Positions 4,208 to 43,632 of a stretch of 64,000 nucleotides of DNA are shown here, one piece after another. This DNA is from Limnoperna fortunei. Lineage: Eukaryota > Mollusca > Bivalvia > Mytilida > Modiolidae. Under the pieces are notes generated by a model. It had not been told where the DNA came from, searched no databases, and saw only the letters and a list, made by a program, of their open reading frames with translations. The DNA is taken from the NCBI GenBank assembly GCA_944474755.1, contig OX104111.1:101733178-101797177 (forward strand). Reading direction: 5' to 3'. Numbering within the stretch: position 1 is the first letter of the stretch; every line of letters begins with the position of its first letter. Position numbers and translations under genes: made by a program.

Positions 4208-4234
4208 ATCTTGAGACTCTCTATCCCTCCTGTC

Positions 4235-20348: not shown

Positions 20349-21211
20349 AACCATTTCAAATACAGTCAAAAGTATGTTAAAAACTCGATTCAGTTGTATC
20401 TGCATGTCCCAAACATTTATATACTGTTTATTACATAGAGACACAAAGGGAAAATATTCGGTTGAATTAACGAAATAAATCGTGCTAGTGAGGGATGCCA
20501 AAAATAGAACTCCAGAGGTTGGTGAAGATTTCATGTTTGTTTTACAATCTGTGCTTTATCATATAGTATCTTGTGAATTACACGTAATTAAAGGTAATCT
20601 GTATTAATAAATTCTAACATGTGTTTATAATAATGTTACAACAATAGAGGTAATGAAGTTTGTGACCGAGAAGGTGTAACCGCAGTGGGAATTATTTCTG
20701 GAAATAACTTCTAAAACTTAAATGCGCATGAATTTACTTTACTACAATTATTATGTTTTTATAACATGCAATTGTCGACAATTCTTAACAGCAAAATTCC
20801 TGATAACTTTTCTTTCCTTTATCTACATGTTTGTATGTTTATGCATCCTTGTAAGCGTTAAAGATGATAGGATTTAAAATATATGTTTTCATTGTTTTTT
20901 TTTCTTATTAAGGGAGCATGTAAGGGACTTAATAAAAATTTATCAAATTACTTTGATGATTTTGCTAATTATGTTACTTATCAGAGCCCTGCCACTAAGT
21001 GGGACGACCTTCCGTCCATCAGAAACTAGTCGTGTCCGCGAGCTATAATTTTTTTCTATTTTGAGGTAGGCTTTTGATTGATATTTGACATGAGGATAAT
21101 AATATCACGAAAATTGTTGCCATACCATAGTTGATGACATTTGACCTCAAAGTCAGCGGAGCCCACAGGTAAATTCGCTACTAAAATGATCAAGTGATGT
21201 TAATGGAACAC
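20349..21211. other. Intergenic, left flank of the large transposon
   Basis: No gene recognised. The last six bases, gaacac (21206-21211), are the left target-site duplication of the element starting at 21212. Confidence 0.65.
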
Positions 21212-22140
21212 TATGGAACGCCGTAACTGCCTTATGTGTACTTGCTTTTATATATGCACATACTTTTTCTCTATATGCACATACTTTTTCTCTATAGGCA
21301 TATACTTATCTATATATGCACATACTTTTTCTCTATATGCACATACTTTTTCTCTATAGGCATATACTTATCTATATATGCACATACTTTTTCTCTATAT
21401 GCACATACTTTTTCTCTATAGGCATATACTTATCTATATATGCACATACTTTTTCTCTATATGCACATACTTTTTCTCTATAGGCATATACTTATTTATA
21501 TATGCACATAGTTTTTCTATATATGCACATACTTTTTCTCTATATGCACATACTTTGTCTATATACTTTTTCTCTATATGCACATACTTTGTCTATATAC
21601 TTTTTCTATATATGCACATACTTTTTCTCTATAGGCATATACTTATCTATATATGCACATACTTTTTCTCTATATGCATATACTTATCGATATATGCACA
21701 TAGTTTTTCTATATATGCACATACTTTTTCTCTATATGCACATACTTTGTCTATATACTTTTTCTATATATGCACATACTTTTTCTCTATATGCACATAC
21801 TTTTTCTATATATGCACATACTTTTTCTCCATATGCACATAGTTTTTCTTTATATGCACATACTTTGTCTATATACTTTTTCTATATATGCACATACTTT
21901 ATATCTATATGCACATACTTTTTCTCTATATGCACATACTTTGTCTATATACTTTTTCTATATATGCACATGCTTTTTCTCTATATGCCCATACTTTGTC
22001 TATATACTTTTTCTATATATGCACATACTTTGTCTATATACTTTTTCTATATATGCACATACTTTGTCTATATACTTTTTCTATATGTGCACATACTTTG
22101 TCTATATACTTTTTCTACATATGCACATACTTTTTCATAT
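21212..22140 (+). repeat. Left terminal inverted repeat with minisatellite array
   Basis: A unique end (21212 to about 21249) leads into about 35-40 units built from tatatgcacatactttttc and variants: an 18-bp tataggcatatacttatc form near the outer end, and a longer form with tttgtctatatac near the inner end. The ordered variant pattern at the outer end matches that of the right repeat in inverse orientation. Confidence 0.92.
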
Positions 22141-23295
22141 GATCACATCCACATTAATTTAAAGACAACTCGGACCGTATAGGAAGACAACTTGGAAAAT
22201 CTGTGAAGTCATCTCAGCTAATAACGTCTAAAGAATTAACAATTATTTTGTAAATAAATGTGATAAATTCGTTTTATCGCTATTTTGCAGTATTTTCCTT
22301 TGATCTTTGTGTGCGATATTATTCCATCTCACTCTACTAGCTTGAGATGGGCCCATCTCAGCTCGCTGTCAAGACGTCGTTAAGTAATACGGTGACGTCA
22401 CAATGTAACAAAACAGCGATAAACAGATTATTTACGTTTTATGAAACTGGATGCATTTTCTCGGCATCTCATCTCAGGGCTTTCGCCCTTCGATGAGATA
22501 TGAACGAGAAAACGCATTTCAAAAAACGTAAATAACCTATAAATACATGTATTAATTTTCATGCTGTCAATGATAAATAAGCTGAATATTAAGCCAATCA
22601 CACATTAAATTACTAATGTTAATCCCTCGATTGGGGACATATATAGTATATATTGTTTCTGCCTCAATAAAAACAGTTTGTATAACAATGATTAATTAAA
22701 AATTATTTAAAGCAAATATTCCAAGCCAAGTATGTGAAATGAGATAAATTAAATTATATAACATTTAATGGAAACCTTCCATTTTCCATTCTAATAACCT
22801 GTTGTGGAAAGATGCAAAAAAGGCCGCATGTGAAACTTGTAAATGAAGGAAAGAAGACGAGAGATTATTGTTTGACTTACTTTTAAAAAAATCTTTAATT
22901 TTATCAATTGATTGGCTTAAAATGCATTTAAAAGTATTGTTTTAGCATGAAAACAACCTGGAATAGGCTTAAAGAGCAAGCTATCGAGCTAAGTGTGCTG
23001 GAAAGTTATGTTAAGCATGAGTATCCTAAAAATAGATAGCAGAACCCTGGCAGTGTCTAAAATATATATGTATCATGCTGTTGTCTGAATTATCTAACCT
23101 GGGCATCATTATAGTGCTGTTAAAAATTATGAAACACTTTGTAGTTCTTCGTTTTACTTTCCTTTTTTGGTTTGTGTTTGTTGTTTGTGTTTTTTTTTAA
23201 ATAAAAGAAGCATAAAAATTTATTAATACATAAACGGTCCGAGTTCTCTCAGTTGTCGGGTCGAGTTGACTTAAAATTAGACATTCTTTTAGAAA
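22141..23295. other. Transposon interior upstream of the ligase gene
   Basis: No ORF of note. It contains a palindromic repeat at about 22270-22535 and the presumed promoter and 5' UTR of the SAM-HECT gene. The sequence ttcttttag directly before the ATG region could be a splice acceptor for an upstream noncoding exon. Confidence 0.5.
22270..22535. repeat. Palindromic MITE-like repeat
   Basis: Two nested inverted pairs are visible. The segments ttttatcgctattttgc and aaaacagcgataaa pair across about 22270-22422. The segments ttatttacgttttatg and ttcaaaaaacgtaaataa pair across 22428-22534, with ctcatctc/gagat arms inside. No target duplication is clear. Confidence 0.6.
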
Positions 23296-24760
23296 ATGGC
23301 GGGAAGTTCCGGCGAAGATCAAATGAAGAAAATTTTAGAAGATTTAAATCTAAACCAATTAATTCCCAAATTCCAAATGGAAAGTATTGATTTGCAAAGT
23401 TTTTTAAGCCTGAGTGAATCTCAGATCAACAAATTAGGTGTTCAAAAATTGGGTGACGTTGTAAGATTGACCAATAAAGTGCGATTAGAACTGCAAAAAG
23501 CTGAAACAAAACAAGTTGGCAAAGAGCACAAGGCATCTACCTCGACACAAAAATCATCATCTGATCTTGCAAAAAATATTATGGAGCATAGAAACGCTCT
23601 TTTTGGATCGGGGAACAAGAGAAAATGTAACAAGAGATCACGTGTTTTACCTAATTTTAACGAATCGGAGGATGTGGGTGATCAAAATAAGTCAATCAAA
23701 AAGAAAAAAAATGTAAAAAAAATCTAGATCCTGGACAGTAACAGTCGTTTGCCTAGCAGATAAAGATTCAAAATATGTTCCATCACCTATTGATAGAGAA
23801 ATCCTATTTAAAGCTGGTCTTGGGCAGAAGAAAATTAAGTTTGATACAATTGATACAGAAGCAGACGTTTTAGAAAAAATAGTTTCAGATGAAATTAGTG
23901 ATAATGAAACAGTTGGCTTTCCACAACTGAAGCAATGTGGCGGCATAGAATTGCTTTTATGCCGTCAAAACTCCAGAGAGTTAAGTCTTGTGGAGTGTGA
24001 GTGGAATGTGCGCAATCTTAAATCTTATTTAGGACCACAAGCCAAATTATATGTCAGACCCATTCAAAAGAGCCTTTCTGTTGAACCTGTTGTTACATGT
24101 TCAGATGAACAAGCAAAAATAAAATGTCGTAACTGTTTTATTGAATATTCTGTCAGAGAGCTGCGTGAACATTTAAAAAAATGTAACAGCTCTTCCTGCT
24201 TAGAAAATACAGAATGTAGTGACAATTCTACACACAGTAGTGATGGTGAAGATCTTACAGACCCCCAGTTGACAAACAGATGCAATATTATTGATAATGC
24301 ATATACAAGTACATGTGGAAACATGAAAGTGGCATGTAGTGATGTACTAAGTACCATGCCCCATACAAAGGATTTAAATAATAATAAACCTATTAATCCC
24401 ACTACTAATTTTGTAACTACTACATATACTAGTTCATTACATGTACCAAATGCAGAAGACATTAGCAACCAGCAACTTAATATAAATCATGATAAGGACA
24501 AATTAAATACAAATCAGGACAGTAGTGAATGTAGTAACTCGTATACATATGTTTTGATTGAATCGGATCTAGATAATTTCAATAAATCTCTCGACCATGA
24601 GATGATACAGCACATTACAGAATCGACACAAGTAAAATGCACAAGTGAAATTGACTCTATAATTTCAAATTCCATTGAAGCTATTTTCCTGCAAAATATA
24701 ACAGAACCTGTTGAAATTCTTAGATTTATTCAAGAACAAATAATAACTGGAAGAAAGCTT
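23296..24760 (+). CDS. SAM-HECT gene exon 1, part before the insertion
   Basis: The ATG lies in a good context (aaaatggcg). It encodes the SAM-like domain (helices MKKILEDLNL, LIPKFQ, LGDVVRLTNKV), a basic linker ending KKKKNVKK, and after the frame change a conserved block (WTVTVVCLADK, GGIELLLCRQNSREL, WNVRNLKSYLG) followed by the UBZ-like finger at 24125-24184. The frame changes in the A8 run at 23715-23722: upstream reads frame 1 and stops at 23725-23727, downstream reads frame 2. One A fewer would keep the frame open. Confidence 0.82.
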
Positions 24761-25639
24761 CAGGGCTCACCACACTGGGCGAAGTGGGCGACAAAGTCGC
24801 CCTACTAGGACCTGAAGTCGCCCTAAGGCGCCTCAAAAGCGAAGTCGAAGTCGCCCTGTCATTTCCCTCAAGTCGCCCGATGGTTCACATAAGATACTTG
24901 TAAATCTGGTCCAAATACTTCACCCAGGCTACCAATTTATCAGTAAATGTGTAATTCCAATAAAAAACGGCAAACAATATGCGTATTTAACATATTTTCA
25001 AACGATTTACGTCTTTCAAATGTATTACGCGCCATTTGTTTATTTACCGGATGTGACTAATTACCGGAAGTGAACAACGAAGAAAAGTAATGTACAACGG
25101 CCCATAATGAAAAATCGTTATTTTTTTGATAAACAAACCCTTTTAATTGGTTTCAAACTTCAGTTCTTTCAAAGAGTATTGTACTTTAACAATATTATGA
25201 TACAAGAACTCATGAATGAAGTTTATGTCTACACATATACAAATATTTTTGTTGATCTATTTTTATTTGTGAATACCTTGTATGGCTACAAGTACTGAAG
25301 TAGATATAAAAATAGTCCCTACATCTGGTGTTTTTTTCATTGATTAATGATAAAGGTTATGTGCTGTTTGATATTGCATAAAATGAATAATAATGAAAAC
25401 GAAAGAAAAAAAACTGAATCTAAGTGTGTTATGGTTTTAGAACACAAGAGAAATAATCCTGGAAATTGATGTAAATAATGAAAAATGTATGTAACTACTG
25501 CGAAATTAATTATTTGTACGGTCCCGCTGACTTCTCCCTAGTGTCTCCTGAAGTCTCCCTATCAGGGCCTGACTTCTCCCTGTTTGGCTGCCAGGGAGAA
25601 GTCACTTCTCCCTACTTTTTTAGAGTGTGGTGACCCCTG
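24761..25639. mobile_element. hAT-like non-autonomous element inserted in exon 1 of the ligase gene
   Basis: The ends are cagggctcaccacact and, inverted, caggggtcaccacact. They are flanked by agctt at 24756-24760 and 25640-25644. CAGGG ends are hAT-like, but hAT usually duplicates 8 bp and only 5 bp match here. Inside each end are short repeats (gcgacaaagtcgccc on the left, cttctccctgg-type on the right). Leaving out the element and one agctt joins ...GRKL to DISCRSS in frame, so the insertion clearly postdates a functional exon. Translation into the element meets a stop (SPY*) at once. Confidence 0.85.
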
Positions 25640-25644
25640 AGCTT

Positions 25645-25800
25645 GATATTAGCTGTCGTAGTAGTGGAGAGGTATGTGAAGGACAAACAAACTTTATAAT
25701 GGTCAACCGTAAGAAAATTCTAGAAACTGCTTTGGAAGAAATAGCAGAGATCAAAGAAGAGAATTTGAGAAAGACTCTTGAAGTACAATTTTATGATGAG
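25645..25800 (+). CDS. SAM-HECT gene exon 1, part after the insertion
   Basis: Fifty-two codons running from DISCRSSGEV to RKTLEVQFYDE, where LEVQFYDE is the usual entry to a HECT domain (the V-x-F-x-E strand). The exon ends at the donor gatgag|gtaaat at 25800/25801 in phase 0 and joins TAADFGGPRR in the next exon. Confidence 0.85.
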
Positions 25801-26719
25801 GTAAATTTGTATAAAAAAAGACAGAAATCATATTTTCAATTATAAATAAAATAGCTATTTTAGAGCTCATGTTGGAGGGTGACTAGACATAATTATATCA
25901 TGGTCCCATTTCACCTTGTTCAATATAAAAAGCAAAGTTTCAGTTTTTATTGTATTGTGCAGTAGAAAGCATAATGATTTTTGTCATACAAATGTAGCAT
26001 CATATTTACATTGTATCAATTAAACAGGTTATGTTTTTTTTTTTAACAAAATGAAAAAAATAAAAAAGGGAATTCTGGTTTATGTCCTAATTTTTACTTT
26101 GTATATAGAATGTAGTGTAAAAATACTGTACATGCGGATACCAGTACAAAGTCAATACCAATCAGAACCAATCTCAGCTCTTAATTCAAGGGTTCGTAAA
26201 GAGAGCGAGGAGGTACAAGTACAATATGATATCCATTTGGAACTATTTTCAGTCATGACTCGGACTACTAATACTAATGACTAAGCCAAAATGTCTGATA
26301 CTATTTGAGAGATGGATAGCCCTTAAGGATCTATTTTAAGTGCACCCTCCAAAAGGCTGCATGCCAAATGTAGAGTAAATGGTCCTGCTATACTTGCAAT
26401 ATCAGTGTTGACAAGCAATTGTTTATTACAAAAAAACGGCAACATTCTAGAAGTTCCAGCATATGATATTTACGTTTCACAATTTGTATGTTATGCTAGA
26501 CCTTATGATTAATAATAAGATTTTCTGGACTTGGACACTGCTGTTAACCACTTCGCTTCTCAAACAGGAGTTTTTTGTACTAGTTTCACTATTCACTAGT
26601 ACATGTAGGTTGATGTTATCTTCTATGGATGTCACCATGATTTATTAATCGATTGTTATGGGAAATCCATCTAAAAAATATGAATCATAACTAGTATAGG
26701 TAATAATGATAATGAGTAA

Positions 26720-26886
26720 CACAAATGTTATTCCAGTTTTCTTACCAAAGGTTGGTGGTTTTCTCCAGGTTCTCTGGCTTCCTCCCCCATAAAACATGTA
26801 AAAGCTGTTCACCATAATATACAATGTAGCTGAAAAATTGCTTAAAGTGGCATTAAACACCATTTAGACAAACAAAGCAAACAAAT
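26720..26886 (+). mobile_element. 5'-truncated SINE in ligase intron 1
   Basis: Contains the SINE centre (ccagttttcttaccaaagg), cttcctcccccataaaaca and the tail agctgaaaaattgcttaaag with gcattaaacacca and a caaa-rich end. The tRNA head is missing, as expected for 5' truncation. Confidence 0.8.
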
Positions 26887-27384
26887 ATACATGTAATTAG
26901 AGCACAGGGACTCGAGTCCCTATGGTTAAAGACACTCACTGCTAAACACATAGTCCACCTGATTGGACCCATGCTTATTATTGTATTAGATATTTGAAAT
27001 GTATATACCAAATTAAAGATTTGAAGGTTTTTACTGTACTCTATCCTCGACCTCCCTTAAAATACAAACTGGTGTATATGTAGCTAAATATTGCTTAAAG
27101 TGGAACTACTGCAAGTCTCTTTTGAAAAAAACCAAATAATAAATATTGGTTTGTATATTTAATAAGCTTAACATGCATGTACAGGTTAACTTAAGTTCAA
27201 TTTGGGGGTCTGCTATATAGTATAATTTCTTTTAGCTATTTCATATCCACATTCTCCACAAATGGTAGAATTTTTCCAGCATTTAGCTTTGTCTATAACA
27301 GCAATCAGACATTTCTCAAATGAATACATTTGTACCTCAGCTAGTGTTTAGACTTTCAGACCCTAAAAATGAAAATTTAGGTAC

Positions 27385-27432
27385 CTTCTAAATATAGCTG
27401 AAATATTGCTTGCTGTAAAACATCAATAAATC
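27385..27432 (+). repeat. SINE tail fragment in ligase intron 1
   Basis: A short match to the SINE tail (atatagctgaaatattgctt followed by gtaaaacatcaataaatcac). No head or central part is present. Confidence 0.5.
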
Positions 27433-27498
27433 ACTCTCGAAACAGTTGTAGAATATCATTGAATGAATGTATTTCTATGTTATTATATATTTTTATAG

Positions 27499-27631
27499 AC
27501 AGCAGCAGACTTTGGTGGACCAAGACGAGAGTTTTTCAGATTAGTTTTGGCTGAAATTGAAAAGAAGTATTTTCAAAATGGATTACGAGAGTACATGGCA
27601 ATGGACTACACAACTGTTGGAAAAATAATGG
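27499..27631 (+). CDS. SAM-HECT gene exon 2, HECT N-lobe start
   Basis: Acceptor ttttatag|acagcagc, donor aatgg|gtcagt. Encodes TAADFGGPRREFFRLVLAEI and MDYTTVGKIM, the conserved opening of HECT domains. Ends in phase 1. Confidence 0.9.
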
Positions 27632-27720
27632 GTCAGTTTATACATGTACTAGTAATTATGTTTAAATGATGTGAAGAATGTTTTTGCAACTATTAGCTAT
27701 ACAATTACATGTGTACATAT

Positions 27721-27985
27721 GGGCCTCAGTGGCCGAGTGGTTAAGGTAGTTCGTCTACTGATGATCACGTGGTCTGTCAACGCTGAGGTTGGGAGTTCAA
27801 GTCTCACTGCAGGCAGGGTGTACTTGACTCCAATCTTAACTGACAAGAATTGCCAGTTTTCCTACCAAAGGTCTGGGGTTCTCTTCTGGTACTTCGGCTT
27901 CCTCCCGCAATAAAAACTAGACGCCATAAAATAGCTGAAAAATTGCTGAAAGTGGATAAACATTATTCAAACAAACAAAACATGT
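27721..27985 (+). mobile_element. tRNA-derived SINE in ligase intron 2, full length
   Basis: Starts ggcctcagtggccgagtgg (A-box-like), has a B-box-like gggagttcaagtctc, the central block tttcctaccaaaggtctggg and the tail atagctgaaaaattgctgaa, ending in caaacaaacaaa. Same orientation as the host gene. Confidence 0.9.
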
Positions 27986-29685
27986 GTACATTGTATATTC
28001 CTTTAAGAAACTTTGCAGCTGATGTCATTCAGAAAATATGAATTACTTTCTCAGGGATAGAGCTTAACTTTTTTCCTATAGTAACCAGTGAGCCCATGAC
28101 TAAACAAATCCAGGGGCCCAACTTTTTTCAGCGCAAGTGAGTTTTAACTATAACTCATATGATCATGTGTACAATTTTGATTATACTATATGGACATGAA
28201 TTCAGAAGTTATTGTCTTGCTTATGATATTTTCACTAAATGTACCTATGTTGGGTCATTATATAAAAGTAATTGAATATTTTAGTCTGTTGGATGCATGT
28301 ATTTTGTCTCCTGAATTAAGATTAGTTAAAGAATTATCAGGCAGACAATACTTTTTAATGGATTATCCCCCCCACCCCCACTCCACACAGAGATACAAGG
28401 TATTTGACTCAAAATCCTACATTTCTAGCATTATTACCTACCTTTATTCTTCAAAATTAGGAATTTATATAACAAATTAGCCTATTTCCATTTTATTTAT
28501 GCAGGAAAGTGTCCACCCATTTTCATTCAAGATTTAAGATTTGTGAGACAAAACTGCCACAGATGCTAACAATAGATATAATTATAAACATGACAAATGT
28601 ATGACTGACATAACTACAATATATAGAGTGATATTGTACTTGTCTTGTTTTGGATTAAAGAAAATAATGAATGTTTTCTATATTTAAACTGCACAATAAA
28701 TTTAATATTTCATTGTGTTGAACTAGAAGCAGAAAATGACATGCATAGCATGTATATTCAATGGAAAATCCATAAATTCTTTAACAATTTATATTGTAAT
28801 TGATATGTTATTGTAATTTATTTTAATATGTTAAAAGTGACTTCCAAAATACTAATTATTATTATTGTGTTTTAATCTTTACAGTTGTAATTTCAAACAG
28901 GAACATCGTATTTGAAATCGCCGGCATCAAATTCATACCTACTCTGGTGATTTCCGTATTTTATTTGCTTTGTACTGGTTTCCGCCAGTAGTAAACTCCA
29001 TGCTATACATGCAAAGTGAAAGTCAGGCTGGAACCAGCTTACACTGTATTGATTATTCCCCTTTGAAAAATGTCGTGTAAAACATTTCAAGACTATTTCT
29101 GACGCAAATGTCTATTACATGTAAATTGTTCTATCTATTCCCGATTTGGATTATAATTATGCCACTTCACCAAATATCATACAGGCGCAAACTTTTGCTA
29201 CTAACATCATTTTTAAGGACAAAACTTGAAATGCGTCTTAGTAACTTAGCGTTCATTGGTTGGTGCATCGTACTACACTTGTCACATTCGTCAACTGGGC
29301 GATCTAGACACAGGCATTTGGTTGCCCACGGGAAATTCTACTTGCATTGGCGACTGGGCAACTTAAGTTTTATCCCTGTTTCTACTAGTAAGAAACAAAA
29401 GTTAAATATTATAAACAAGACTATTGTATTTTAATCAAAGTATTCAAAGTTCAGAGTTGTCCTATTTTCTACGGGCCGATTGGTCCTTACTACGGTACAA
29501 GTTGTCACTATCCAAGTTGTCCGGTTACCATTAATACTACCTTAACAAGGCCTTCTTGATATGAACAAATCATGCATGTACTAGAGTATGCATACCAGGT
29601 AGCATCTTAACATGAAATTGCTTTTTAAACAATGTTCATTTATAGTAATCACTATATTTATTGCATTTAAATTTATTTTAAACAG

Positions 29686-29825
29686 CATTAAGCATACTGC
29701 AGAATGGATGCATGCCTACGTTTTTAGGCGATGAGATTTTAAATGAAATATTCCGTGTAGATGATCCTAGCTCAATTTGCACCAAAAATTTGAGAATCGG
29801 CTTAGATTGTTTAGGGCTTGTACGG
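29686..29825 (+). CDS. SAM-HECT gene exon 3
   Basis: Acceptor aaacag|cattaag, donor gtacgg|gtaagt. Encodes (A)LSILQNGCMPTFLGDEILNE and GLDCLGLVR; with the previous exon it reads GKIMALSILQNG. Ends in phase 0. Confidence 0.9.
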
Positions 29826-29858
29826 GTAAGTATACAATAAATTATGTATGATTTTTGT

Positions 29859-30173
29859 CATCGTCGAAACCCTCGTCTGGTCGCGTTCTCGCTTTGCTAC
29901 CACTTACCGACCGTGGGCACACTTGTAGATACTTTCTCATTTTCATGAATATTCATTAAATTTAATTATCCAATGGGAACGACGGATAAAACATTTATTA
30001 ACCGAAACTACGTAAGTTATGTCTTTTTTGATTACGCTTCGCCGGAAGTAAAAGCAACCAATCAAAATAGGACATTAAATATTTTTGAAAACAAGAAAAT
30101 ATCTACCAGTGTGCCTACGGTCGGTAAGTGGTAGCAAAGTGAGAACGCGACCAGACGTGGGTTTCCGATGATG
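29859..30173. mobile_element. Long-TIR MITE with 9-bp duplication in ligase intron 3
   Basis: Inverted ends of about 60 bp (catcgtcgaaaccctcgtct outside, ccgaccgtgggcacac inside, with good matches on the right). They are flanked by gattttTgt (29850-29858) and gattttAgt (30174-30182), 8 of 9 identical. Long inverted ends plus a 9-bp duplication are typical of Mutator-like elements. It has no coding capacity. Confidence 0.8.
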
Positions 30174-30249
30174 GATTTTAGTTATTACATTGACTATATG
30201 TTATAAAATGAAATACCTGCAGGGTCTGCTCTACCCTAACCATTTTTGA

Positions 30250-30375
30250 TATGAATTTCCAGGTTTACTGATGCGGGATGGGAGTATTCACTTACATGTA
30301 AATTCAAAATGGGCGTCATGATATACATGTAGCTGGAAAATTGCAGAATGTGACTCTTAATCAATTGCATTAAAA
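30250..30375 (+). repeat. Degraded SINE-like fragment in ligase intron 3
   Basis: Weak match to the SINE second half: gggcgtcatgatatacatg then agctggaaaattgcagaatg and a short A-rich end. The head is not recognisable. Confidence 0.45.
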
Positions 30376-30637
30376 CAAACTAATAAAATGTTAGTTTTTC
30401 TTACAATCATCTACTTTCACAACATATACAAGTTCTCAATACAATTCTCTTTTAACCATAATGATCTTTTAAAAATTAAAATGAATAAACCAGTTATAAA
30501 AAAAAACCAATTAAAATAATGGGCAGCTTAGATGTATAGATGTATCATGGTAGAGAAATAGTGAGGAGCCTTTGTTTTGATACTGCAACTAAACCTCATT
30601 GTTAGGGCATCTTGTTCATTAAAAAATATATTTTCAG

Positions 30638-30812
30638 ATTGGGACTGTAATTCCCGCTTTTGTCTACCTTCTCAGACCAAGATCTGTACCACTGACAATG
30701 AAAACCATTTTACGTATCTTAAAGCCATTATTTTCGGAGGAAGGATCCAACATCAGAATTTATGAAGACTGTTCTTATGCAGCATTTGTTAGATATGTAA
30801 GATCTGTTGGAA
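30638..30812 (+). CDS. SAM-HECT gene exon 4
   Basis: Acceptor attttcag|attggg, donor ttggaa|gtaagt. Encodes IGTVIPAFVYLLRPRSV, LKPLFSEEGSNIR and YVRSVG, part of the HECT lobes. Ends in phase 1. Confidence 0.9.
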
Positions 30813-31394
30813 GTAAGTATGATGTTTCAATATTTGACGTTGTTTAGTAGAAAATACCCTCGAGACAACAACCACTCCCTCAGACATCTAAATCAGCACG
30901 ATAGCATCTTTCAGCCTAAAATAAAATGTAAAACTCGTACTGAAGTGCAGACAGTTCATAGACTGCAGTAAGAAAAAAAAAGAATTTTATGCAAACTACA
31001 AGTTTTTTGGTAAACTGTCACTAAATGGAAATATTCAAAGTGACAAGGAAGAGCCCATTCTCATAAGATATTGAACAAATAACAGTATATAAATAAAATA
31101 CAGATGAGAGTGATATAGATGACAATGTTTTTTGGAAGGGTAACTACTTACTTGCTAACAATTCCGATTTGGCAGGATTGTTCAGATTTTTACATTGTTA
31201 TTCCGCTTTCTGGTTTCATGCAGGTCAGATTGTTCTGCTTTTAATTTTTCTTGTTATAATGTTCAAAAAGACACTTGTAAATATATTTCAAATCTGATTA
31301 TATAAAGGGCAGACGAGATCTCGATTACAGCATGTTAAAAAATGGTAAATCATTGATTCACCAGGAAATTTTTCAGGATTTGGAGAGCTTTATT

Positions 31395-31617
31395 ATACCC
31401 CCACTTTTATGAGAGGGGGCTATATTGCAATCACCTCGTTCATATGTCCGTACGGTGCAAAATTTTGTAACAGATTTCTCGGCTTCTACTAAAGGGATTG
31501 ATTTCAAATTTGGTGCACAGCTTTAACATAATGAGTTGTACCATGCCTCCCATTTCCAGGTCAGTCAGTTATCTACTTCCTGATTTCCTAGTCGAAAAAT
31601 GGTCGAGTGGGGGTATA
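31395..31617. mobile_element. Short inverted-repeat element with taccccc ends in ligase intron 4
   Basis: Left end tacccccacttttatgag and right end gagtgggggta are inverted, with TA on both outer sides, consistent with a Tc1/mariner-type MITE. Similar tatacccca ends occur near 12814 and 51150. Confidence 0.55.
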
Positions 31618-32379
31618 CTTACATGTAGCACGACTTTTGCAGTCACGCTCTATAAGCATCCATTGTACTGGTGACATAAAATTGTACAGTATAAACAAGT
31701 GTATTCTTTTAGTTGCAGCTTATATATTAATAAGAAAAATCAATGATTAAAATAAAATACGTTTATAAATTTTTTAAGAACGTTAATTTTAAAACTAATT
31801 TAAGAGCGTTTGTTTATCAATCGGTTAAAATTTTTCATTAAGGTGCACTGTACTCTCCTTTTTCAAATTGGTCACTCTCAGTAATTAGACGTACCTCAGA
31901 AATAAACAAATGGGAAGTAATCCATTTGAAGCACATGAAATGTACGAAAAATTTGTTAGATATGCAAAATCTTCACAATTTGTATTTGCATTACAGATTT
32001 AATCATAAGGTGGAGGTCTGTGTGCATCAGTATAATATAATTGGGAATCTATTTCAAAGCTTCTGTCGATGACAAAAGTGGCAAGAGCTAAAAAATTTAC
32101 TGGTTCACTAGTGAGGAAAATACAATTTTCACCCCCCAACAACAAAAATGTGAACCACTCGTATGTTTCACTCTGGAGGATATGTTGCTGTTACATGTAA
32201 TACCATTAAAATCTTTTGTAGATACCTTTTCATTTTTTGTTCACCTATCACAACTCGCAGAAAGGTAATATTTTGGTTTTTACAAAAAACGTGTGGCATG
32301 GGGGGGACTGTGCCCTTGAACCCCCTGCTGACCTGCTTGGACACTCCAATATGTTGGCAACAAGTATGGTAATAATCTG

Positions 32380-33434
32380 GACCTTGTTCATCACGTGGTT
32401 AAATTTTAAGCAAGAGTTATAATTCATAACCCAGGGTTAAAATTGAACCTAGTGTTAAATTTTGTTGTCATCCTGTGGTTAAATATAAACCATGGTTAAA
32501 TCCTTGGTTATACTGTAATATTTAACCCACCTTCTAGGGCTAGGTTAAATATTTAACCAAGGGTTTAAATTATTCAAAATGGCTGTTTAAACTTAAATGT
32601 AACTCGAAGAATTTTAACAGTAACCATGAGCTACAGTCCATTTTTATTCTTTAACAAATAAAATATTAAAGTACCCACGCAATATACAGTTGAAATACAA
32701 TCAGTTTAGTTTATAAAATAATCAAATATTATGCTGGAAAACAGGAACCGGTGCTGTGCCTGTTTTTTATGAATAATGCTATAAAAAAAAATTACATCAT
32801 CATTTTAATTTGCACAATTTTCTTTTAATAAACGACATTTTAAAGCATTTAAATTAGTTTATTTAACTGCAGATGCCTGTCAAAGTGCTGTGTTGCTCTA
32901 ATGTCATTATTGAATCACATTGGAACATGGAAGAAAGGTGAAGGTCATATTTTCTTGGAAAGTAAACAAACAGGTGATGAGTTTTTTTTTTAAAGTTTTT
33001 TCGTTTAGAATTGAATGGAATTTATCTAAAATTACTTCATTGGCTGTTCTGACTGCAACACCTACTGAAGTCATCTTATTAGCAATTACTTTTTTTGTTT
33101 TGTTGGCATAGTTGTTTGCTTAGAGTTTAAAATGTTGTAATATTTATCCAATATTGTTTTATATAGTCAGCTCTTCTTCCTTCCTAATTTTTTTTCACCT
33201 GGGATCATCTGCCATTGGAAGAAGGATGTGCAAGGAATTAAGGCTTATGGGAAATACAAAACCTAAGTTAAAATTTAACCATTGGTTAAATAATTTAACC
33301 ATGTTATATAACCAAGTGGTTAAGTAAAGATGAGCAATAGGAATTTAACCCTATGTTATGTAACCAAAGGTTAATCATTTTAACCAATTAAACCTTAGGT
33401 TAAATTTAACCACAAGATGAACAACTGGGTCCAG
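32380..33434. mobile_element. Foldback-like element with ggttaaa repeats in ligase intron 4
   Basis: The ends ctggacc..ttgttcatc and gatgaacaa..gggtccag are inverted, with gtggttaaattt continuing inward. Both arms are rich in ggttaaat/atttaacc motifs (32390-32580 and 33260-33425) in mixed orientation. The centre is unique, with no coding signal. No clear target duplication is left. Confidence 0.7.
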
Positions 33435-33559
33435 GTCAATTGTAAAAATACTGATGACTGGTGGAACAGTGAAATCAAGAACTTTTAGAGTAATTGGTAA
33501 AAATGCTATAGAAAATAAATACTTAAGCATAATAATAAAATATAACACTGCACTGCAGG

Positions 33560-34380
33560 TATAATAATAATAAACGCCTTTATTTCAACAGGATAACACA
33601 ATTTAGTATACAACTAGTTTTGTCAATGTGGTCCTGCATTATATACATATTTTACGACATACAATAATATATAATAAATAGTATGATTAAATTGATAAAA
33701 AAGCAAAATAACACTAGTACTGCACAAGAATATTCATATGTAGATTCACAGATAATTACTTATAAAATTACTAAATTAAATATTGCTTTTTAAAGGATTC
33801 TAATACAGTACAGCTACAAAGATTTGTTGATAAACTGTTCTAAAAATTTCAACCACATATTTCAAATGACCTTTTATAATACTCAGTTCTAGATTTAGGT
33901 ATCTAAATCAAATTATTATCACTTTGGCGTGTTCTTCTTGTGCTAACTTCATGTACAAACTTAAATACATTCATATATTCAGGTGTTAAATTTTTCAAAA
34001 CGTTGAAAATAAGTATGGCTTTTCTGTAAACAAAGTAATCTTGAATAGGCATCCATTTTAACATTCTAAAACGATCTATAGATGGAGTCATAACATTTCT
34101 TTCATTTAAAATAATGCGAGCTGTTTTTTTTTTTGCAGTTTACACACTTATTTATATTTGATACATTTTTGGCTTCAGACCAAATGGTATAACAGTAATT
34201 ATAATGTGAGAAAATTACACAATTGTATATTTTTAGCAAAGCTTCATTTGACAGTAAATTTCGTAAACGCTTCAGTATTCCAAGTTTTTTGGAAATTTTG
34301 TTCACTACAATGCAGGTTCCAGGCTTAGGAAAATTACAAAAGTTTAACATGTTTATGAGTGTCAAACCCAGCGTTAACCT
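33560..34380 (-). pseudogene. 3' fragment of a second LINE reverse transcriptase in ligase intron 4
   Basis: On the minus strand, LGILKRLRNLLSNEALLKIY, FSHYNYCYTIW and, after an A-run frameshift, MLKWMPIQDYFVYRKAILIF, LTPEYMNVFKF and STRRTRQSDNNL. These match the C-terminal part of LINE RT proteins. The 3' end carries a (taa)n-like run near 33562-33575. It is 5'-truncated and frameshifted, and differs from the LINE at 0.75-5.3 kb. Confidence 0.82.
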
Positions 34381-34675
34381 GGTACAGCAATTTAATTAAA
34401 ATTAATACCTTCCCTTACTCCCACTTTTTATTATTGTCAGGCATTGGAGATATAATAACAAAATATTGACCTTTTGATATAAATATATTCCAAAGAAAAG
34501 TTTAGACATCTCATAAAAAGTAACCATTCAAATGTTATTTTCTCACCCGAGGTATAGAAATATCGTGATTTCCTGTTGGTGAGATTTCTCACTGGTGAGA
34601 TAGCTTATTGTGACGTCAGTTTATTATGACGTCATGGATGTTTCAGTTACGTGTACACAAATAGCACCAAACATG

Positions 34676-34880
34676 CTGAAGAAATGCCCAAATAATCTGC
34701 AACTCTGGTTAGAAAAAATATCAAATCACTCGAGGAAAGTCGATTAAAGAAAATTGCAAACCTGCGGGGAAAGATATCTGTTTGTCCAATCCCTCGGTAG
34801 AGCCTCGGGATGGACAAGATATCTTTGCCCTTGGGTTTGAGATTTTCTTGTCTTGTCTTTCCACTTGTGATAGATACTAT
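34676..34880 (+). repeat. Palindromic dispersed repeat, copy 1
   Basis: Shares aactctggttagaaaaaat, the central palindrome (tcggtagagcctcgg) and the gagattttcttgtcttgtc region with 45372-45560. This copy lies inside the large transposon and the other outside, so the family is independent of it. Confidence 0.8.
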
Positions 34881-35453
34881 TTGTCATATATATGGGATTC
34901 TGGTGGCATTGGCATCAACACTTAACATTTTGCTTTATATCTTTTTAAGCATATGCCCTAGCTCCATCAAATTTTTTGTCCAATGGTAGCTTATGATGAG
35001 TACTTGCAAGTCAGTCACATGTCACATGACCTTGACCTCAATTTCACAGTCCAGCGACTATGTTGATTTTTTTTAATGAGGGCAGTTCCTCTGTAACTAT
35101 GCATGATAGGTGACAATATTTGGAATATAGGTTGCTGATGAATAGTACATGCCTGTTGTAAGGAGACACCTGACCTTGACATAAATTTCATGGTCCAGTG
35201 ATTGTGTTAAAAGTTTTTTTATTAGGTCAGTTTCTCTGTAACCATGCATTGTATATTTTTAATGATAACAATTTAATGCTGTTTAAGTGGTGTTTACGAC
35301 ATAATTCTTTTCATTACAGATTTTGTTGTTAGAATGCCTTGGACAGTGGTGTAACAACACAACAGTAAACCAAAGCTATATGTGATGTACATTTCTGTTT
35401 TGATGTATTATTTCCAATCAGAACACTGAAATATCAACTTACATATTTTACAG

Positions 35454-35719
35454 GTGGAAGAAGACCGGGATTGTCACTGAGTAATATAATTGAATTTGTG
35501 ACAGGGGCATCAGAGGAGCCAGTATTGGGATTTGCACAGCAACCATCAATAGAATTTGTTCAAGTTAGAGATGACCTTAGTTTCCTTCCCACAGCTAATA
35601 CATGTTCAAATTCTATGATGCTACCAAGACCATCACCAGACCTTTCATTACCTGCAGATGATAAGCTGTTTGACCTCTATGATTATGCCTTTTTGAATAC
35701 ATACTATGGCTTAGTCTAG
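35454..35719 (+). CDS. SAM-HECT gene exon 5, catalytic C-lobe
   Basis: Acceptor ttttacag|gtggaag. Encodes GRRPGLSLSNIIEFVTGASE, then LPTANTCSNSMMLP with the predicted thioester Cys codon at 35603-35605, and the terminal FDLYDYAFLNTYYGLV before TAG. The C-lobe has the expected Thr-Cys pair. Confidence 0.92.
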
Positions 35720-37413: not shown

Positions 37414-37540
37414 GAGTCGATTTCACAAAAAGTCATAGGCATAAAATCTATCGTAAGTATTGAAAGATCAAAAGGAAATCCATTGTGACGTCAATACTTA
37501 TGATAGATTTTACATTTACGACTTTTTTTGAAATCGTCTC
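37414..37540. mobile_element. 127-bp hairpin MITE with probable 8-bp duplication
   Basis: Ends gagtcgatttcacaaaaagt and, inverted, gagacgatttcaaaaaaagt. Inner arms ctatcgtaagtattga / tcaatacttatgatag. Flanks aagatctg (37406-37413) and atgatctg (37541-37548) agree at 7 of 8 positions. Confidence 0.7.
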
Positions 37541-38364: not shown

Positions 38365-38540
38365 ACAGTGTTATAAATTGGGTAGATTCATATAAAGCCT
38401 GTATGATTTCTGAAAGAGTTGTGTTGAGTTGCAATCGGCTGTATAGACCCAAGGCAACACAGACAGTCTATACAGCTGATTGAGACCAAATACAACTGCC
38501 TAAAACATAAAGGCTTTGTATGAAATTTTATAACACTGTT
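38365..38540. repeat. Hairpin MITE-like repeat
   Basis: Ends acagtgttataaa / ttataacactgt are inverted, and the arms continue through tcatataaagcctgtatg and ggctgtatagac. No target duplication found. Confidence 0.65.
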
Positions 38541-40554
38541 TTAAACCAGTGAAAACACATTAATCTGACTGTTTTGACATTAAAAAAACTATTAATTGTT
38601 GAAAATAACATGCAATAGACTGAACTTTATGGAAAAACTGGAAATTATACTAATGCAGGGAATGTTTCCTGTTATAAAATTTATACTGTGAATATTTCTT
38701 ATTAATTTGATTTGTAACTATTATAAAATGGTTAAGTTCTTATTTCTTTTAAGTCATTGGTTAATAATTAGTTATATGTGAGGATTTAGCCTCAAGAAGT
38801 TGAAAAACAACTTTTGAATTACCCCTGGCATCTGCATCTACATCTTGATAAAAGAATTTCATGTCATGGAGCTGTTAAGATTAAATTTTGTACATAATAT
38901 AAGCAACCAGGAATAGTGACATACCATTTATTATATCCCTATTTACAAAGGGGCATTGGTCAGTTATTATAAGTATTCATAACGGCTTGATTTTCAATTA
39001 AGTAATGGACCTTAGTTACTTTCAAGAAGTAAATAGGTGTTATCGTCATCCTAAGAAATAATTCATGTTAATATATAAAGTTGTTATTTTGAAAAACCGT
39101 AAATTCTTTTAGTTTGCCAGCTCATAATAGAGGACTGTTGGAATATTCTCAGCATCACTTCCATGTGATTGTCCACAGCCAGTGTTGGTATGCAGATGCA
39201 TCATGGGGTTATTGATGACTTATTTTCTGTAGTTAGTTTTGTTTAGATTTTATATCTTGTTAGTGTTCTGATACTGATATTCATTTAAGTTTTTAGCTCA
39301 TCTGGCCCAATGGACCATGAAAGCTATTGCCATCACAAGGTGTCCTTTAAGTGTTTACTTTTCAGTTTTTTATCTTCACCCTTTTCACTGTTAGGGTAGA
39401 TTGATGCTAACTTGTAAAGAAAACATACATGTATATGAAAAAATCAATTGAACATATGTACAAATTATATGGCTTCCATGCACGATTCTAGTTTCTGATT
39501 GGCTAATGCTTATAAAACAGCATGGTTACCACCAAAAGCATTTGTATCTTCCTATGAAAGTGTGCTACATAAGCATTTTTGTGTCAGGTGAGCAATTCAG
39601 ACTCGAATCTCATAGCCTCTAGTTTTAGATGTTGGATTTTTTGGAACAAATTTGCATAATTAAATTAAGGGTTCTTAAATGGTGTTCTTGACCTAATTTT
39701 TTTTAATGTTTCAATCTGATTAGATGTCTATAAGACGGGCATGTTTTCTCGGTCTCAATCAAATTTTCATATGCTTGAGTAATATCTTCAAATTTTTAAA
39801 TTAAAAAAATATAACTTCTGTGGAAGTGAATACTCTTTACTCAGCATATTAATGAGACATTTAGTGTATCCACTCTCATTTTTAAAAAAATTCATAAATG
39901 ATCATGTGCAAGTTGTTAAGCCTGAAATTGTGAATGTAAGATTTATAGATCAATCCATCTTGTTTTAGCAATGGTTAAAAATATTACGAATTTCAGAACA
40001 ATAGTAGGTCATTGACCTTTACCATTCAGTTTTAAACTGACTAGTAAAGGTTTGAAATGACAAAAAATGGTGTTGCTTCATTTTTGTCAACTTGTATACA
40101 TATTAGTATACATTAAATAATCAAGTGGTGAATATCTGTCGGTGTACTAATTGTTTATGAAATTAAAATTTTCGTTAATAAGCTTTTGTATGTATTTTCA
40201 TTACTGCACAACTGAAGAATTGATGCCATAATCTATCTTAAAAACTGATGTACCAGAACAAAACATGACAAAAAGAACCTTATAATACAGGATATGAATT
40301 TTTAATTTTGTAAGTTCAGAAATGTTTCTGCATTTCATATTGCAATATACAAAAGACTGGACAAAAATACAAAGAAAGAGTCATGTATTGAATTATGTCA
40401 ACTAACTGCAAGTTTCATGGTCAACCAGTCATTTTTAGAAATAATAAATACACTGCAGTAGTTATAAATTTACAGTAACTCAAGCTTCCTGTCGATACAG
40501 ATAGAACTGTTTTTGTTGTTATTTTCATAATTACAGATATTCTTGTAGTACAAG

Positions 40555-41898
40555 TTAATTGTTTTCTGTAATAATTTCCAGTGCTTTCACATAGTCATCA
40601 ATACTAAAGTTCTCGCCCGTTGGAATCAATTCGCGGTTTAAAATAAGCTTACAATGTTCGTTTATTAAATTTATAGGTTGAAATATTGGCCGTTCTCTAT
40701 CAGTTATAATTTCATTTTCGCCATTCCCTTCAACCCCAAATTCTTGTAAATCTGTCTCGTTCATCTGAAGACTAACAGGATTCTGAATTTGCCCTGAGGC
40801 CCAAAGCTGTAGAGGAGAAGATTTAACCGTTCTAATTCTGTGACAAGACCATGCTGTACACCACATTTGCAACCTTCTGTTTATTTCATTCATGTAAATG
40901 TAATGCAGTGCTGCCAAGTGAATATCATTTAAGGGATCTAAAATTTCTTGATCCTCCATATAATAGAATAGATGGTAAAAGTAACATAAAACGCCTTCAA
41001 AGACGTCCCTCCAGAGTCTTTCTATACGCTGATTGTGAGTGCTAGGACCTGTTATCATGCTGCCATTACCTCGTTCCTTTAGCATATAATCAGCAACAGA
41101 AACATTTTCCCGTCCCTTGTCGGATCTGACTTTCAATGGCAGGCCATAGTTAGCCACACCCGTAAGAAAGCTTTCCAAAACCGTTTTAGAAGTATTGTTG
41201 TCACTACAGTTGAGAAACATAATCATTCTACTAAATCCATCAATGGCACCAATGATAACAAACCTCCATCGAATAAGCTTATGGTTGGTGTCTATATGCC
41301 ATAAAGCATTAGGGGCCATCACATTATAAACTCTGCGATGAAGACGTCCTGTTTTTCTAGCTACAACACCAGACGAATCTATTCTGTGGATAGTGTCCCT
41401 GAGTCTCCATCGTTGTATTTTTAAACCCTTCGTTTTTATCAATTCCCGCAGCATTTGCTCACCACACATTGGAAAATCTTTTATGATTTCAGATACAATT
41501 TCATCCAAGGAATCGTCATCTATTTCTGAAAACCCTCGTTTGGATAGATCAAACTGAGCCATTCGACGATATATAGTACGCTCGGATACTCGCAAAAGCT
41601 TTGCTATGTCCGATATATGAAACCCACAGTCTAACAAACTGTCTAAAGTTAATTTGTCAATGTCAAATTTTGGAGCCCCACAGTTTCCTCCGATTCTCAA
41701 TGGTTTAGTTGTTCCATATTTTATACATTCTGATCGAAGTTTCATCATGTCTGTTGAATTTGAAACTCCTATAGATTCCAAATCGCGTTTTGAAAGCAAG
41801 CTGATAATATCGGGAGTAATGTTTTCCCGTTCAAAATGCTCATATACATCTTGTAATCCAACCTTTTTTAACACAGTAAGCATGAAGGGCTCGGCCAT
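40555..41898 (-). CDS. SAM-HTH-DDE transposase/integrase, intact
   Basis: A 447-residue uninterrupted ORF. Residues 1-62 form a SAM-like domain (FMLTVLKKVGLQDVYEHF, LLSKRDLESIGV). Residues 93-112 are a helix-turn-helix (ISDIAKLLRVSERTIYRRM), followed by a helical spacer. Residues about 198-300 form an integrase (rve, RNase H-fold) core with WHIDTNHK, RSDKGREN and NQRIERLWRDVF; the catalytic triad is D203, D260 and E293 (56 and 32 residues between them). HTH-plus-rve proteins with NHKLIRWR and RIERLWRD motifs are widespread in invertebrate and fish genomes. The IS3EU group is one possible assignment, which I cannot verify. The ATG has context aaatggcc and sits about 74 bp inside the right minisatellite array. 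The gene has no introns and converges on the ligase gene. It is inferred to cut and join the 21.3-kb element ends. Confidence 0.93.
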   Translation of the reverse strand: MAEPFMLTVLKKVGLQDVYEHFERENITPDIISLLSKRDLESIGVSNSTDMMKLRSECIKYGTTKPLRIGGNCGAPKFDIDKLTLDSLLDCGFHISDIAKLLRVSERTIYRRMAQFDLSKRGFSEIDDDSLDEIVSEIIKDFPMCGEQMLRELIKTKGLKIQRWRLRDTIHRIDSSGVVARKTGRLHRRVYNVMAPNALWHIDTNHKLIRWRFVIIGAIDGFSRMIMFLNCSDNNTSKTVLESFLTGVANYGLPLKVRSDKGRENVSVADYMLKERGNGSMITGPSTHNQRIERLWRDVFEGVLCYFYHLFYYMEDQEILDPLNDIHLAALHYIYMNEINRRLQMWCTAWSCHRIRTVKSSPLQLWASGQIQNPVSLQMNETDLQEFGVEGNGENEIITDRERPIFQPINLINEHCKLILNRELIPTGENFSIDDYVKALEIITENN

Positions 41899-41971
41899 TT
41901 ATGTTTCAAAATCGATATTTCCCGTGATTCTTTAAACCATGTGCAGCACACTTTCATAGGAATAATAATTC

Positions 41972-42551
41972 GCATATAGGAAAAGTATGTGCATATATGG
42001 AAAAAGTATATAGACAAAGTATGTGCATATAGAGAAAAAGTATATAGACAAAGTATGTGCATATATAGAAAAAGTATATAGACAAAGTATGTGCATATAT
42101 AGAAAAAGTATATGGACAAAGTATGTGCATATAGAGAAAAAGTATGTGCATATATAGAAAAAGTATGTGCATATATAGAAAAAGTATATAGACAAAGTAT
42201 GTGCATATAGAGAAAAAGTATATAGACAAAGTATGTGCATATAGAGAAAAAGTATGTGCATATATAGAAAAAGTATGTGCATATATAGATAAGTATATGC
42301 CTATAGAGAAAAAGTATGTGCATATAGAGAAAAAGTATGTGCATATATAGATAAGTATATGCCTATAGAGAAAAAGTATGTGCATATATAGATAAGTATA
42401 TGCCTATAGAGAAAAAGTATGTGCATATAGAGAAAAAGTATGTGCATATATAGATAAGTATATGCCTATAGAGAAAAAGTATGTGCATATAGAGAAAAAG
42501 TATGTGCATATATAAAAGCAAGTACACATAAGGCAGTTACGGCGTTCCATA
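41972..42551 (-). repeat. Right terminal inverted repeat with minisatellite array
   Basis: This is the reverse complement of the left end: the unique end ggcagttacggcgttccata finishes at 42551. The same unit variants follow in the same order inward. The array stops about 74 bp upstream of the transposase ATG (41898), so it probably contains or borders that gene's promoter. Confidence 0.92.
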
Positions 42552-43632
42552 GAACACTTTGCTTGTAAAATCACTATGATTTACATAGGCTTAACATGCT
42601 GAAGATGAGAATTGAGGCATGGATATATTTAGGTAATTAACAACAAACCAATGATATATTTTTCAATGAAAAAAGCTACTTAATCATATATTTTACAGAG
42701 GTAAAAGAGTGACCCATTCGGGTCGCACATCAGTACCCAATATATACCAAGTTACCCCCCCCCCCCCCCGTGGGATGATATAACACTGATATCTAGTTTT
42801 CACTAAATCGCATCTACATTTCATTAGATGTACTTTTCAAATTAAGCTAAATTACGTTATACTTCCTAATATAAAATCAATTCAACGAGAAAATGATACA
42901 CAACCAAATACGCAACGTCTGACATTGTATACTGAAGTGTTAAGTGCACTCACATCATTGTCAGATACTGTTAGTAACGTCCTTTTGAACGGTAAGGGAT
43001 ATTTATATTTTTTACGCGTAATAACACATTTGCAATTCGGTAAACACAGTTTCTACAGCACACTTATAGTGTTGTCCTGCAATAGAAATAGAAATATGAT
43101 CCAATGCGTGTATGCGATAGATTAGCGGAGAGCATATAAAATACATATTAGTTCATAATTTATCTGTGGCTTTGAGTGGTAAGTTTTTATTTATTTAGCT
43201 TACTTTTATTTTATTTTTTTTATTGATATACGCATTACTTTTACGTATATGAGGGCACAGTGTATGCAGTTAGTTGATGAGGGTTGTTTACTCTGTACTG
43301 AATATCAGACAAGGGAACACGCAAATGTTGACTTATTCGCAACGATATACATTTATTTCTCTTAAAAAAACTGAAAATGTATTCATATAAACTCATATAA
43401 AATGTTTATATAAAAAGGGTGGGTGGGTGGTAAAAATGATTTTTTAACAGAAATTCAGATTTCTGAAAATAAACAATAACAATGAAAGGGAAAAACATGT
43501 GATTGTCATAAAAAGGCACATAGTAATTTTGGTTGTAGTTTTACTTTAAAAATTTTGTAAATATACTATTAACAACACATAAGTGACTTTTTTGGTAAAA
43601 AGATGGATCTTAGATTTCTGGAAATAACAATT

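What the first reader, a model, noticed from the sequence alone, without database searches (positions are those of the whole stretch)
21206..42557. A 21.3-kb DNA transposon with minisatellite inverted ends carrying both a DDE transposase and a HECT ubiquitin ligase
Seen directly: identical inverted ends (tatggaacgccgtaactgcc...), inverted tandem arrays inside each end, and a perfect 6-bp duplication gaacac outside both. Inside are exactly two gene-scale coding units, convergent, apart from debris of nested insertions. From family knowledge: an rve-type DDE enzyme can move DNA with inverted ends, and HECT enzymes attach ubiquitin. Inference: one mobile unit in which a host-like ligase with introns travels with the transposase. 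I do not know whether this composite has been named.
Basis: partly seen in the sequence, partly recalled or inferred. Interest (0 to 1): 0.95.

Follow-up and report, generated by a model that had tools for sequence, protein, structure and literature searches.

The report
Two-gene jumping DNA with ubiquitin ligase
This is a real 21-kb mobile DNA element that carries both the enzyme that moves it and a ubiquitin-attaching enzyme, and the same pair of genes travels together in many related elements across this animal's genome.

Summary
Confirmed, with corrections. 21212-42551 is one DNA transposon: TATGG..CCATA ends (188 bp identical, inverted), 6-bp duplication gaacac, and the target repeat elsewhere in this genome holds a single gaacac (three sites read). 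Nine further copies with these ends each have their own perfect, different 6-bp duplication; two of them (C3, C13) carry both genes, seven carry neither.

Termini, duplication length and integrase-type DDE transposase fit the known IS3EU superfamily. New is the partner gene, a SAM + HECT ubiquitin ligase convergent with the transposase. In this genome 20 of 30 HECT clusters lie 2.1-6.3 kb from a related transposase, all 20 convergent (chance about 0.09). A divergent family (transposase 53% identical, no minisatellite at its end) has four copies holding both genes between related ends and perfect 6-bp duplications. So this is an old two-gene architecture, not one capture. Both proteins begin with a SAM domain; I infer that the ligase docks on the transposase (35-40%), untested.

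The window's own HECT gene is broken (frame break; 879-bp nested insert). My searches of open papers found none joining IS3EU and HECT; Repbase could not be searched.

The parts
21206..21211 (.). left 6-bp target site duplication gaacac
   Evidence: paralogous empty sites with a single gaacac
42552..42557 (.). right 6-bp target site duplication gaacac
21212..22140 (+). left terminal inverted repeat, TATGG..., with minisatellite array
41974..42551 (-). right terminal inverted repeat, ...CCATA, with minisatellite array; outer 188 bp identical to the left end
40555..41898 (-). intact 447-aa transposase: SAM (41737-41871), HTH, rva_4/rve DDE core with D203, D260, E293
23296..24760 (+). HECT gene exon 1, first part: SAM domain (23335-23478), CCHC finger motif; frame break in the A-rich stretch 23701-23722
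24761..25639 (.). 879-bp nested insertion in HECT exon 1, CAGGG..CCCTG ends, AGCTT duplicated at 24756-24760 and 25640-25644; copy C3 lacks it and has one AGCTT
25645..25800 (+). HECT gene exon 1, remainder
27499..27631 (+). HECT gene exon 2
29686..29825 (+). HECT gene exon 3
30638..30812 (+). HECT gene exon 4
35454..35719 (+). HECT gene exon 5 (C-lobe) with the catalytic-Cys motif TANTC

Best explanation
A cut-and-paste DNA transposon that fits the IS3EU superfamily, from a lineage that carries two convergent genes as one mobile unit: a SAM-HTH-DDE transposase and a SAM-(CCHC finger)-HECT ubiquitin ligase. Shown: one unit with defined ends, 6-bp duplications, an empty target, further copies holding both genes, and the same convergent pair in divergent families between related ends. 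Inferred: the transposase binds the ends (terminal motif, and in this family the subterminal repeats), cuts, and joins the element to target with a 6-bp stagger, as integrase-type DDE enzymes do; the ligase is a kept partner, most likely brought to the transposase or the transposon-end complex by SAM-SAM contact, where it ubiquitinates the complex or a host factor that restrains the element (this last step about 35-40%; the number below is for the unit and its conserved two-gene make-up).
For: Ends and duplications: 10 of 10 copies of this end family with both ends read; 5 of 6 pairs of the divergent family. Empty site: 40 of 40 scored matches (2039 candidates) to the joined flanks start at 37-42 and reach 149, the junction being at 79; 39 of 40 have the length of an ungapped match; three read by letter show one GAACAC. 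Both genes in window, C3 and C13, and in C11, C14, C7, C4 of the divergent family. 20 of 30 HECT clusters have a listed transposase 2,075-6,310 bp away, all convergent; expectation about 0.09 if placed at random. All 5 transposase matches that cover at least 440 of 447 residues without a stop (C1 window, C3, C6, C11, C14) have a convergent HECT partner. HECT exon 1 is open without stops in C6 and C11 families. Transposase: D/D in 30 of 30 and E in 29 of 30 aligned relatives, intasome-like fold. HECT: Pfam HECT and SAM, fold, Cys aligned to that of AREL1. IS3EU termini, duplication and TIR criteria from passages of PMC10045372 and PMC12730594.
Against: In the window's own family 7 of 10 copies with both ends read carry neither gene, and of 22 unpaired ends read inward (20 for 3 kb, 2 for 10 kb) only one, C13, shows the transposase and none the HECT. 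9 of 30 HECT clusters have no listed transposase within 20 kb and one cluster is mixed; only 20 of 92 listed transposase clusters pair with a listed HECT (many are fragments, and only 94 of 1088 and 61 of 236 candidates were scored). The HECT gene is damaged in the window, C3 (middle exons missing) and C13 (stops), so this family may no longer need it. One of six divergent pairs (C10) has no matching duplication. SAM kinship is not exclusive: the HECT-SAM profile scores BICC1 SAM at 45.2 bits, like the transposase SAMs. No function was tested.
Confidence: 0.92

Rival explanations
1. The ligase is a counter-defence cargo: it marks a host silencing or chromatin factor for destruction, independent of the transposase, as the TET/JBP gene of fungal IS3EU elements is proposed to counter methylation.
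For: Fungal IS3EU elements carry TET/JBP and alpha-kinase genes, the kinase opposite in orientation to the transposase (passages of PMC12730594). HECT open frames are kept in divergent families and 20 of 30 HECT clusters pair with a transposase.
Against: Both proteins start with a SAM domain of one class, which a free-acting ligase would not need. No host target is known.
Confidence: 0.35
2. Passive passenger: a host HECT gene was captured once and hitch-hikes without a role.
For: Damaged HECT in the window, C3 and C13; gene-less copies are the majority of the window's family.
Against: The pair recurs convergently in divergent families (transposase down to about 50% identity); exon 1 open over 516 and 507 codons in C6 and C11; the eight usable of 91 pairs of last exons give dN/dS 0 to 0.52, though few pairs are usable and several are near saturation.
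Confidence: 0.15
3. Pseudo-composite: two short array elements happen to flank unrelated genes.
For: Arrays are long and repeated; gene-less large copies with the same ends exist.
Against: No inner ends in the window, one shared duplication and single-copy empty sites, the same whole unit in C3 (90% of C3 covered by the window element; the main pieces 96-97% identical) and C13.
Confidence: 0.01

Closest known systems
IS3EU superfamily (Repbase; termini TA..TA, TAYGG..CCRTA in the fungal families; PMC10045372, PMC12730594, passages seen)
   Same: TATGG..CCATA ends, 6-bp duplications, TIR over 30 bp, integrase-type DDE transposase without HHCC-type match, first catalytic D at residue 203
   Different: Carries a SAM-HECT ligase instead of TET/JBP or alpha-kinase; transposase bears a SAM domain (I could not check whether listed IS3EU members do); minisatellite TIRs up to about 0.9 kb; 14-38 kb long with both genes
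TET/JBP-carrying IS3EU of rust fungi and Tuber (PMC12730594, passages seen)
   Same: IS3EU with an accessory enzyme gene opposite the transposase
   Different: The accessory enzymes are a dioxygenase and an alpha-kinase, not a ubiquitin ligase; fungal, not animal
KolobokP (PMC9587614; search listing and start of abstract only)
   Same: Animal DNA transposon with a second enzyme gene, found in molluscs among others
   Different: Kolobok transposase and a homing endonuclease
Bivalve and coral HECT proteins of databases (for example P0121, Mytilus edulis)
   Same: SAM + HECT, 58% identity to the window's pieces
   Different: Annotated as genes of unknown role or as HECT-type ligases; not labelled as transposon genes in the answers seen

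Membership tests
IS3EU | termini TA..TA / TAYGG..CCRTA | tested here: met
   TATGG..CCATA in the window and the eight pairs; C13 has one end altered to ..CCAGA; divergent family TATGG..CCATA
IS3EU | 6-bp target site duplication | tested here: met
   10 of 10 in the window's end family, 5 of 6 in the divergent family
IS3EU | TIR longer than 30 bp | tested here: met
   188 bp identical; both ends of C11, C14, C7 and C4 match a 70-mer at 100%
IS3EU | integrase-like DDD/E transposase, no HHCC motif, first D 100-300 residues in | tested here: met
   rva_4/rve, HTH and SAM upstream and no HHCC-type family among the 14 Pfam matches; D203, D260, E293; fold
IS3EU | transposase falls in the IS3EU/GingerRoot clade | not testable with these tools
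   Repbase sequences not available
HECT ubiquitin ligase | HECT C-lobe with catalytic Cys | tested here: met
   Pfam HECT 3.6e-08; Cys aligned with AREL1; intact motif in 13 of 14 last exons compared, one (C2_47) with an extra residue
HECT ubiquitin ligase | HECT fold | tested here: met
   model of homologue P0121 (mean pLDDT 65.4): top PDB matches are HECT domains, E 6e-9, but TM-scores are low (TMq 0.14-0.31)
HECT ubiquitin ligase | ligase activity | not testable with these tools
   needs protein
Ginger1/Ginger2/Polinton | 4-5 bp duplications (Ginger) or 6 bp with polymerase and capsid genes (Polinton; gene list recalled) | tested here: not met
   6-bp duplications; the ORF list and the Pfam scan of five ORFs of the element showed only transposase, SAM and HECT

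The most novel reading that the evidence does not exclude
A lineage of IS3EU transposons in bivalves, and perhaps corals, encodes its own ubiquitin ligase as a dedicated transposition partner: the ligase and the transposase bear SAM domains of common descent and co-assemble at the transposon ends, so that ubiquitin controls the life of the transposition complex. Against proof: SAM kinship rests on 56 columns and no binding was tested.
Probability: 0.37. Interest if true: 0.87.

Novelty: new variant of a known kind. Interest (0 to 1): 0.68.

Why it matters
It adds ubiquitin ligation to the short list of enzymes that DNA transposons carry besides a transposase. Because the pair recurs in divergent families of one genome, and the ligase shares a protein-contact domain with the transposase, it makes a concrete question testable: does a transposon control its own transposition complex, or its host, by ubiquitin? 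It also suggests that at least part of the repeated SAM-HECT genes annotated in bivalve genomes are transposon genes.

Tried and rejected
Rejected: pseudo-composite of two arrays; host gene merely spanned by ends (copies C3, C13); association confined to one copy.

Led nowhere: viral-contig scans for the transposase, the HECT, the terminal 20-mer and the array unit (none); genome-contig scans (none; one 4.3-kb locus, L001, a HECT gene piece in a contig of a MAG named for a sponge symbiont, probably host DNA, with no transposase match by the scan). Contig lengths of transposase and HECT homologues (118 and 128 typed): three shared lengths, all about 2 kb, from different sources and too short for both proteins, and none among those of 5 kb or more (52 and 93); the lists are capped at 120 best, so this is not evidence against. 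SAM as exclusive link: not shown, BICC1 scores as well. Empty allele: only paralogous empty sites were sought. The CCHC finger (20 of 132 homologues by a regular expression) reminded me of UBZ4 ubiquitin-binding fingers; recalled, not tested.

Rows dropped: of 156 listed HECT matches (some in both), P0165-P0168 were left out of the 132 used; the SAM tree used 30 of 120 listed transposases, 11 chosen HECT SAMs and four solved SAMs; dN/dS used 8 of 91 pairs.
Full report
Observation. The ends are as described. TATGGAACGCC... starts at 21212 and its reverse complement ends at 42551; gaacac flanks both. The outer 188 bp are identical, the arrays inside each end are inverted copies that stay collinear for about 420 bp and then differ. 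The terminal 20-mer is found nowhere else in the window at up to five mismatches, so the arrays are not short elements of their own.

Genes. The transposase (40555-41898, minus strand, 447 aa) is intact: SAM, HTH, and an integrase core (Pfam rva_4 5e-76, rve). D203, D260 and E293 stand in the catalytic places; D and D are kept in 30 of 30 aligned relatives, E in 29 of 30. Its model (mean pLDDT 79.2) matches retroviral intasomes and IstA. The HECT gene runs from 23296 to 35719 on the plus strand in five exons with GT-AG introns, read against the intact Mytilus edulis homologue P0121 (58% identity). It holds a SAM domain, a C-x2-C-x11-H-x3-C motif, and a HECT C-lobe whose Cys aligns with that of AREL1. 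In the window this gene is broken: its frame breaks in an A-rich stretch, where copy C3 also breaks though with other run lengths, and an 879-bp element sits in exon 1 with AGCTT on both sides; C3 has the empty site with one AGCTT. Homopolymer error in the assembly is not excluded for the frame break.

One mobile unit. The window lies in a 1.34-Gb genome. A search with the terminal 69-mer gave 40 full-length ends, 40 being the number scored of 205 candidates. Eight further inward-facing pairs were fetched; together with the window, nine of nine show perfect 6-bp duplications, all different, and homology that begins at TATGG and ends at CCATA. A tenth, C13:3667644-3685276, has GGCACC on both sides. 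Three of the ten carry both genes: the window, C3 (14,025 bp, 90% covered by the window element, main pieces 96-97% identical; middle HECT exons missing) and C13 (transposase 96% with one stop; matches to all parts of the HECT gene, with stops). The other seven carry neither gene; six of them share a different interior and are 10-20 kb long, one (5.6 kb) is partly like them. Among 22 unpaired ends read inward (20 for 3 kb, 2 for 10 kb), only C13 showed the transposase and none the HECT. So the gene-bearing form is the minority of its family, as autonomous copies often are (general knowledge).

Empty site. The window's two flanks joined (149 letters, junction after 79) match a dispersed repeat: 40 of 40 scored matches (2039 candidates) run from 37-42 to 149 at 93-95%, and 39 of the 40 have the length of an ungapped match. 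Three read by letter have one GAACAC at the junction.

Recurrence in other families. The transposase search scored 94 of 1088 candidates and gave 105 matches; the HECT search with P0121 scored 61 of 236 and gave 71. Joined into 92 and 30 clusters, 20 of the 30 HECT clusters have a listed transposase within 20 kb at 2,075-6,310 bp, and in all 20 the genes face each other; one cluster is a mixture of two neighbouring elements; nine have no listed transposase. Random placement would give about 0.09. Three of the 20 are the window's own family; the others have transposases about 47-68% identical to it. Conversely only 20 of the 92 transposase clusters pair with a listed HECT; many of the rest are fragments, but this limits the claim. 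All five transposase matches that cover at least 440 of 447 residues without a stop have a convergent HECT partner.

Ends of a divergent family. Copies C11 and C14 (transposase 53% identical to the window's) agree at 99.8% up to TATGGAACGCCATAGCTGTCTTATG and not beyond; this end resembles the window's over its first 26 bases or so and has no minisatellite. Its 70-mer finds paired ends, and duplications are perfect in C11 (26.5 kb, CATTTG), C14 (28.3 kb, AATAAT), C7 (14.3 kb, GTTTTG) and C4 (38.4 kb, ATCTTG), all four with matches to both genes inside, and in a 4.7-kb copy on C1 (CCATAA); a sixth pair, C10, has none. In families C6 and C11 HECT exon 1 is open over 516 and 507 codons; in 14 last exons the Cys motif stands in 13, one having an extra residue; dN/dS for the eight usable of 91 pairs is 0 to 0.52. 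This supports, without proving, that the ligase is kept by selection.

What it is. Ends, duplication and transposase type meet the published description of IS3EU (TA..TA termini, usually 6-bp duplications; TAYGG..CCRTA and TIR over 30 bp in fungal members; passages of PMC10045372 and PMC12730594). Placement in the IS3EU tree could not be tested. Fungal IS3EU elements carry TET/JBP and alpha-kinase genes, so an accessory enzyme opposite the transposase is a known kind; the ligase is new in the literature I could search: no paper holds IS3EU with HECT (35 papers hold IS3EU), and searches found none; two searches gave papers that by title do not concern this. Only open-access PMC texts are held, and Repbase was not available.

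How it may work. The transposase part is inferred from its family. For the ligase, the SAM domains are the clue. The transposase-SAM profile scores the window's HECT SAM at 31.6 bits and three others at 38-44, against 23.3 bits for the best solved chain with the full transposase profile. The reverse is less clear: the HECT-SAM profile scores the window transposase at 46.8 and 114 of 121 transposases at a median of 35.7, but BICC1 at 45.2. A tree of 45 SAMs puts the 30 transposase SAMs in one group next to three HECT SAMs (96/88), with solved SAMs outside, on only 56 columns. The solved relatives (BICC1, ANKS3, ANKS6, tankyrase) include SAMs that polymerise (recalled). I therefore favour a ligase that docks on the transposase or its complex, at 35-40%; a free counter-defence ligase stands at about 35%; a passenger at 15%.

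Distribution. Transposase relatives: 2069 proteins, the best named ones from bivalves (Crassostrea, Mytilus, Pinctada, Mizuhopecten, Dreissena) and one coral. HECT relatives: 48 and 108 proteins in two searches, among named ones bivalves and corals, and a weak tail of vertebrate HECT proteins in the first. The host species was not identified.

Noticed in passing
G000 C8, C9, C14, C4, C1 (L010-L015, L019-L025): Large elements of 10-20 kb with the same ends but without either gene; they share another interior whose listed ORFs are short, LINE-like or repeat-coded (not searched in Pfam).
   Followed up: partly
G000:C4:55104566-55124457 (L021-L023): A 19.9-kb copy with internal array sequence at about 10-11 kb, apparently two elements in tandem within one pair of ends and one GTTTCA duplication.
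   Followed up: partly
window 23701-23722 and copy C3: Both copies break frame in the same A-rich stretch with different run lengths: inherited lesion, assembly error or transcript slippage; unexplained.
   Followed up: partly
G000:C4:90916613, 90919997, 90923381: Identical ends of the divergent family repeat every 3,384 bp beside the C4 element.
   Followed up: no
G000:C15:9922862-9959819: The repeat into which the window element inserted occurs eight times at about 5.3-kb steps, a tandem array.
   Followed up: no
window 10303-11356: 48 copies of a 22-bp palindrome-like unit.
   Followed up: no
window 20166-20347: 24-bp minisatellite, 96% matches, open in a reading frame that repeats GHNGASED/GHNGASAD.
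   Followed up: no
window 846-4951 (-): LINE with endonuclease and reverse transcriptase, frames broken.
   Followed up: no
window 45720-46229: Exon of a sodium:dicarboxylate symporter gene 3.2 kb beyond the right end; the element is not seen to interrupt it.
   Followed up: no
window 29866-30165: Fold-back element with 88-nt arms inside the transposon, between HECT exons 3 and 4.
   Followed up: no
L001: Animal-like HECT gene piece with introns in a contig filed under a Cycloclasticus symbiont MAG of a sponge; probably host contamination.
   Followed up: partly
P0256: Paramuricea clavata protein named Arylsulfatase B is a SAM-HECT family member by sequence.
   Followed up: no
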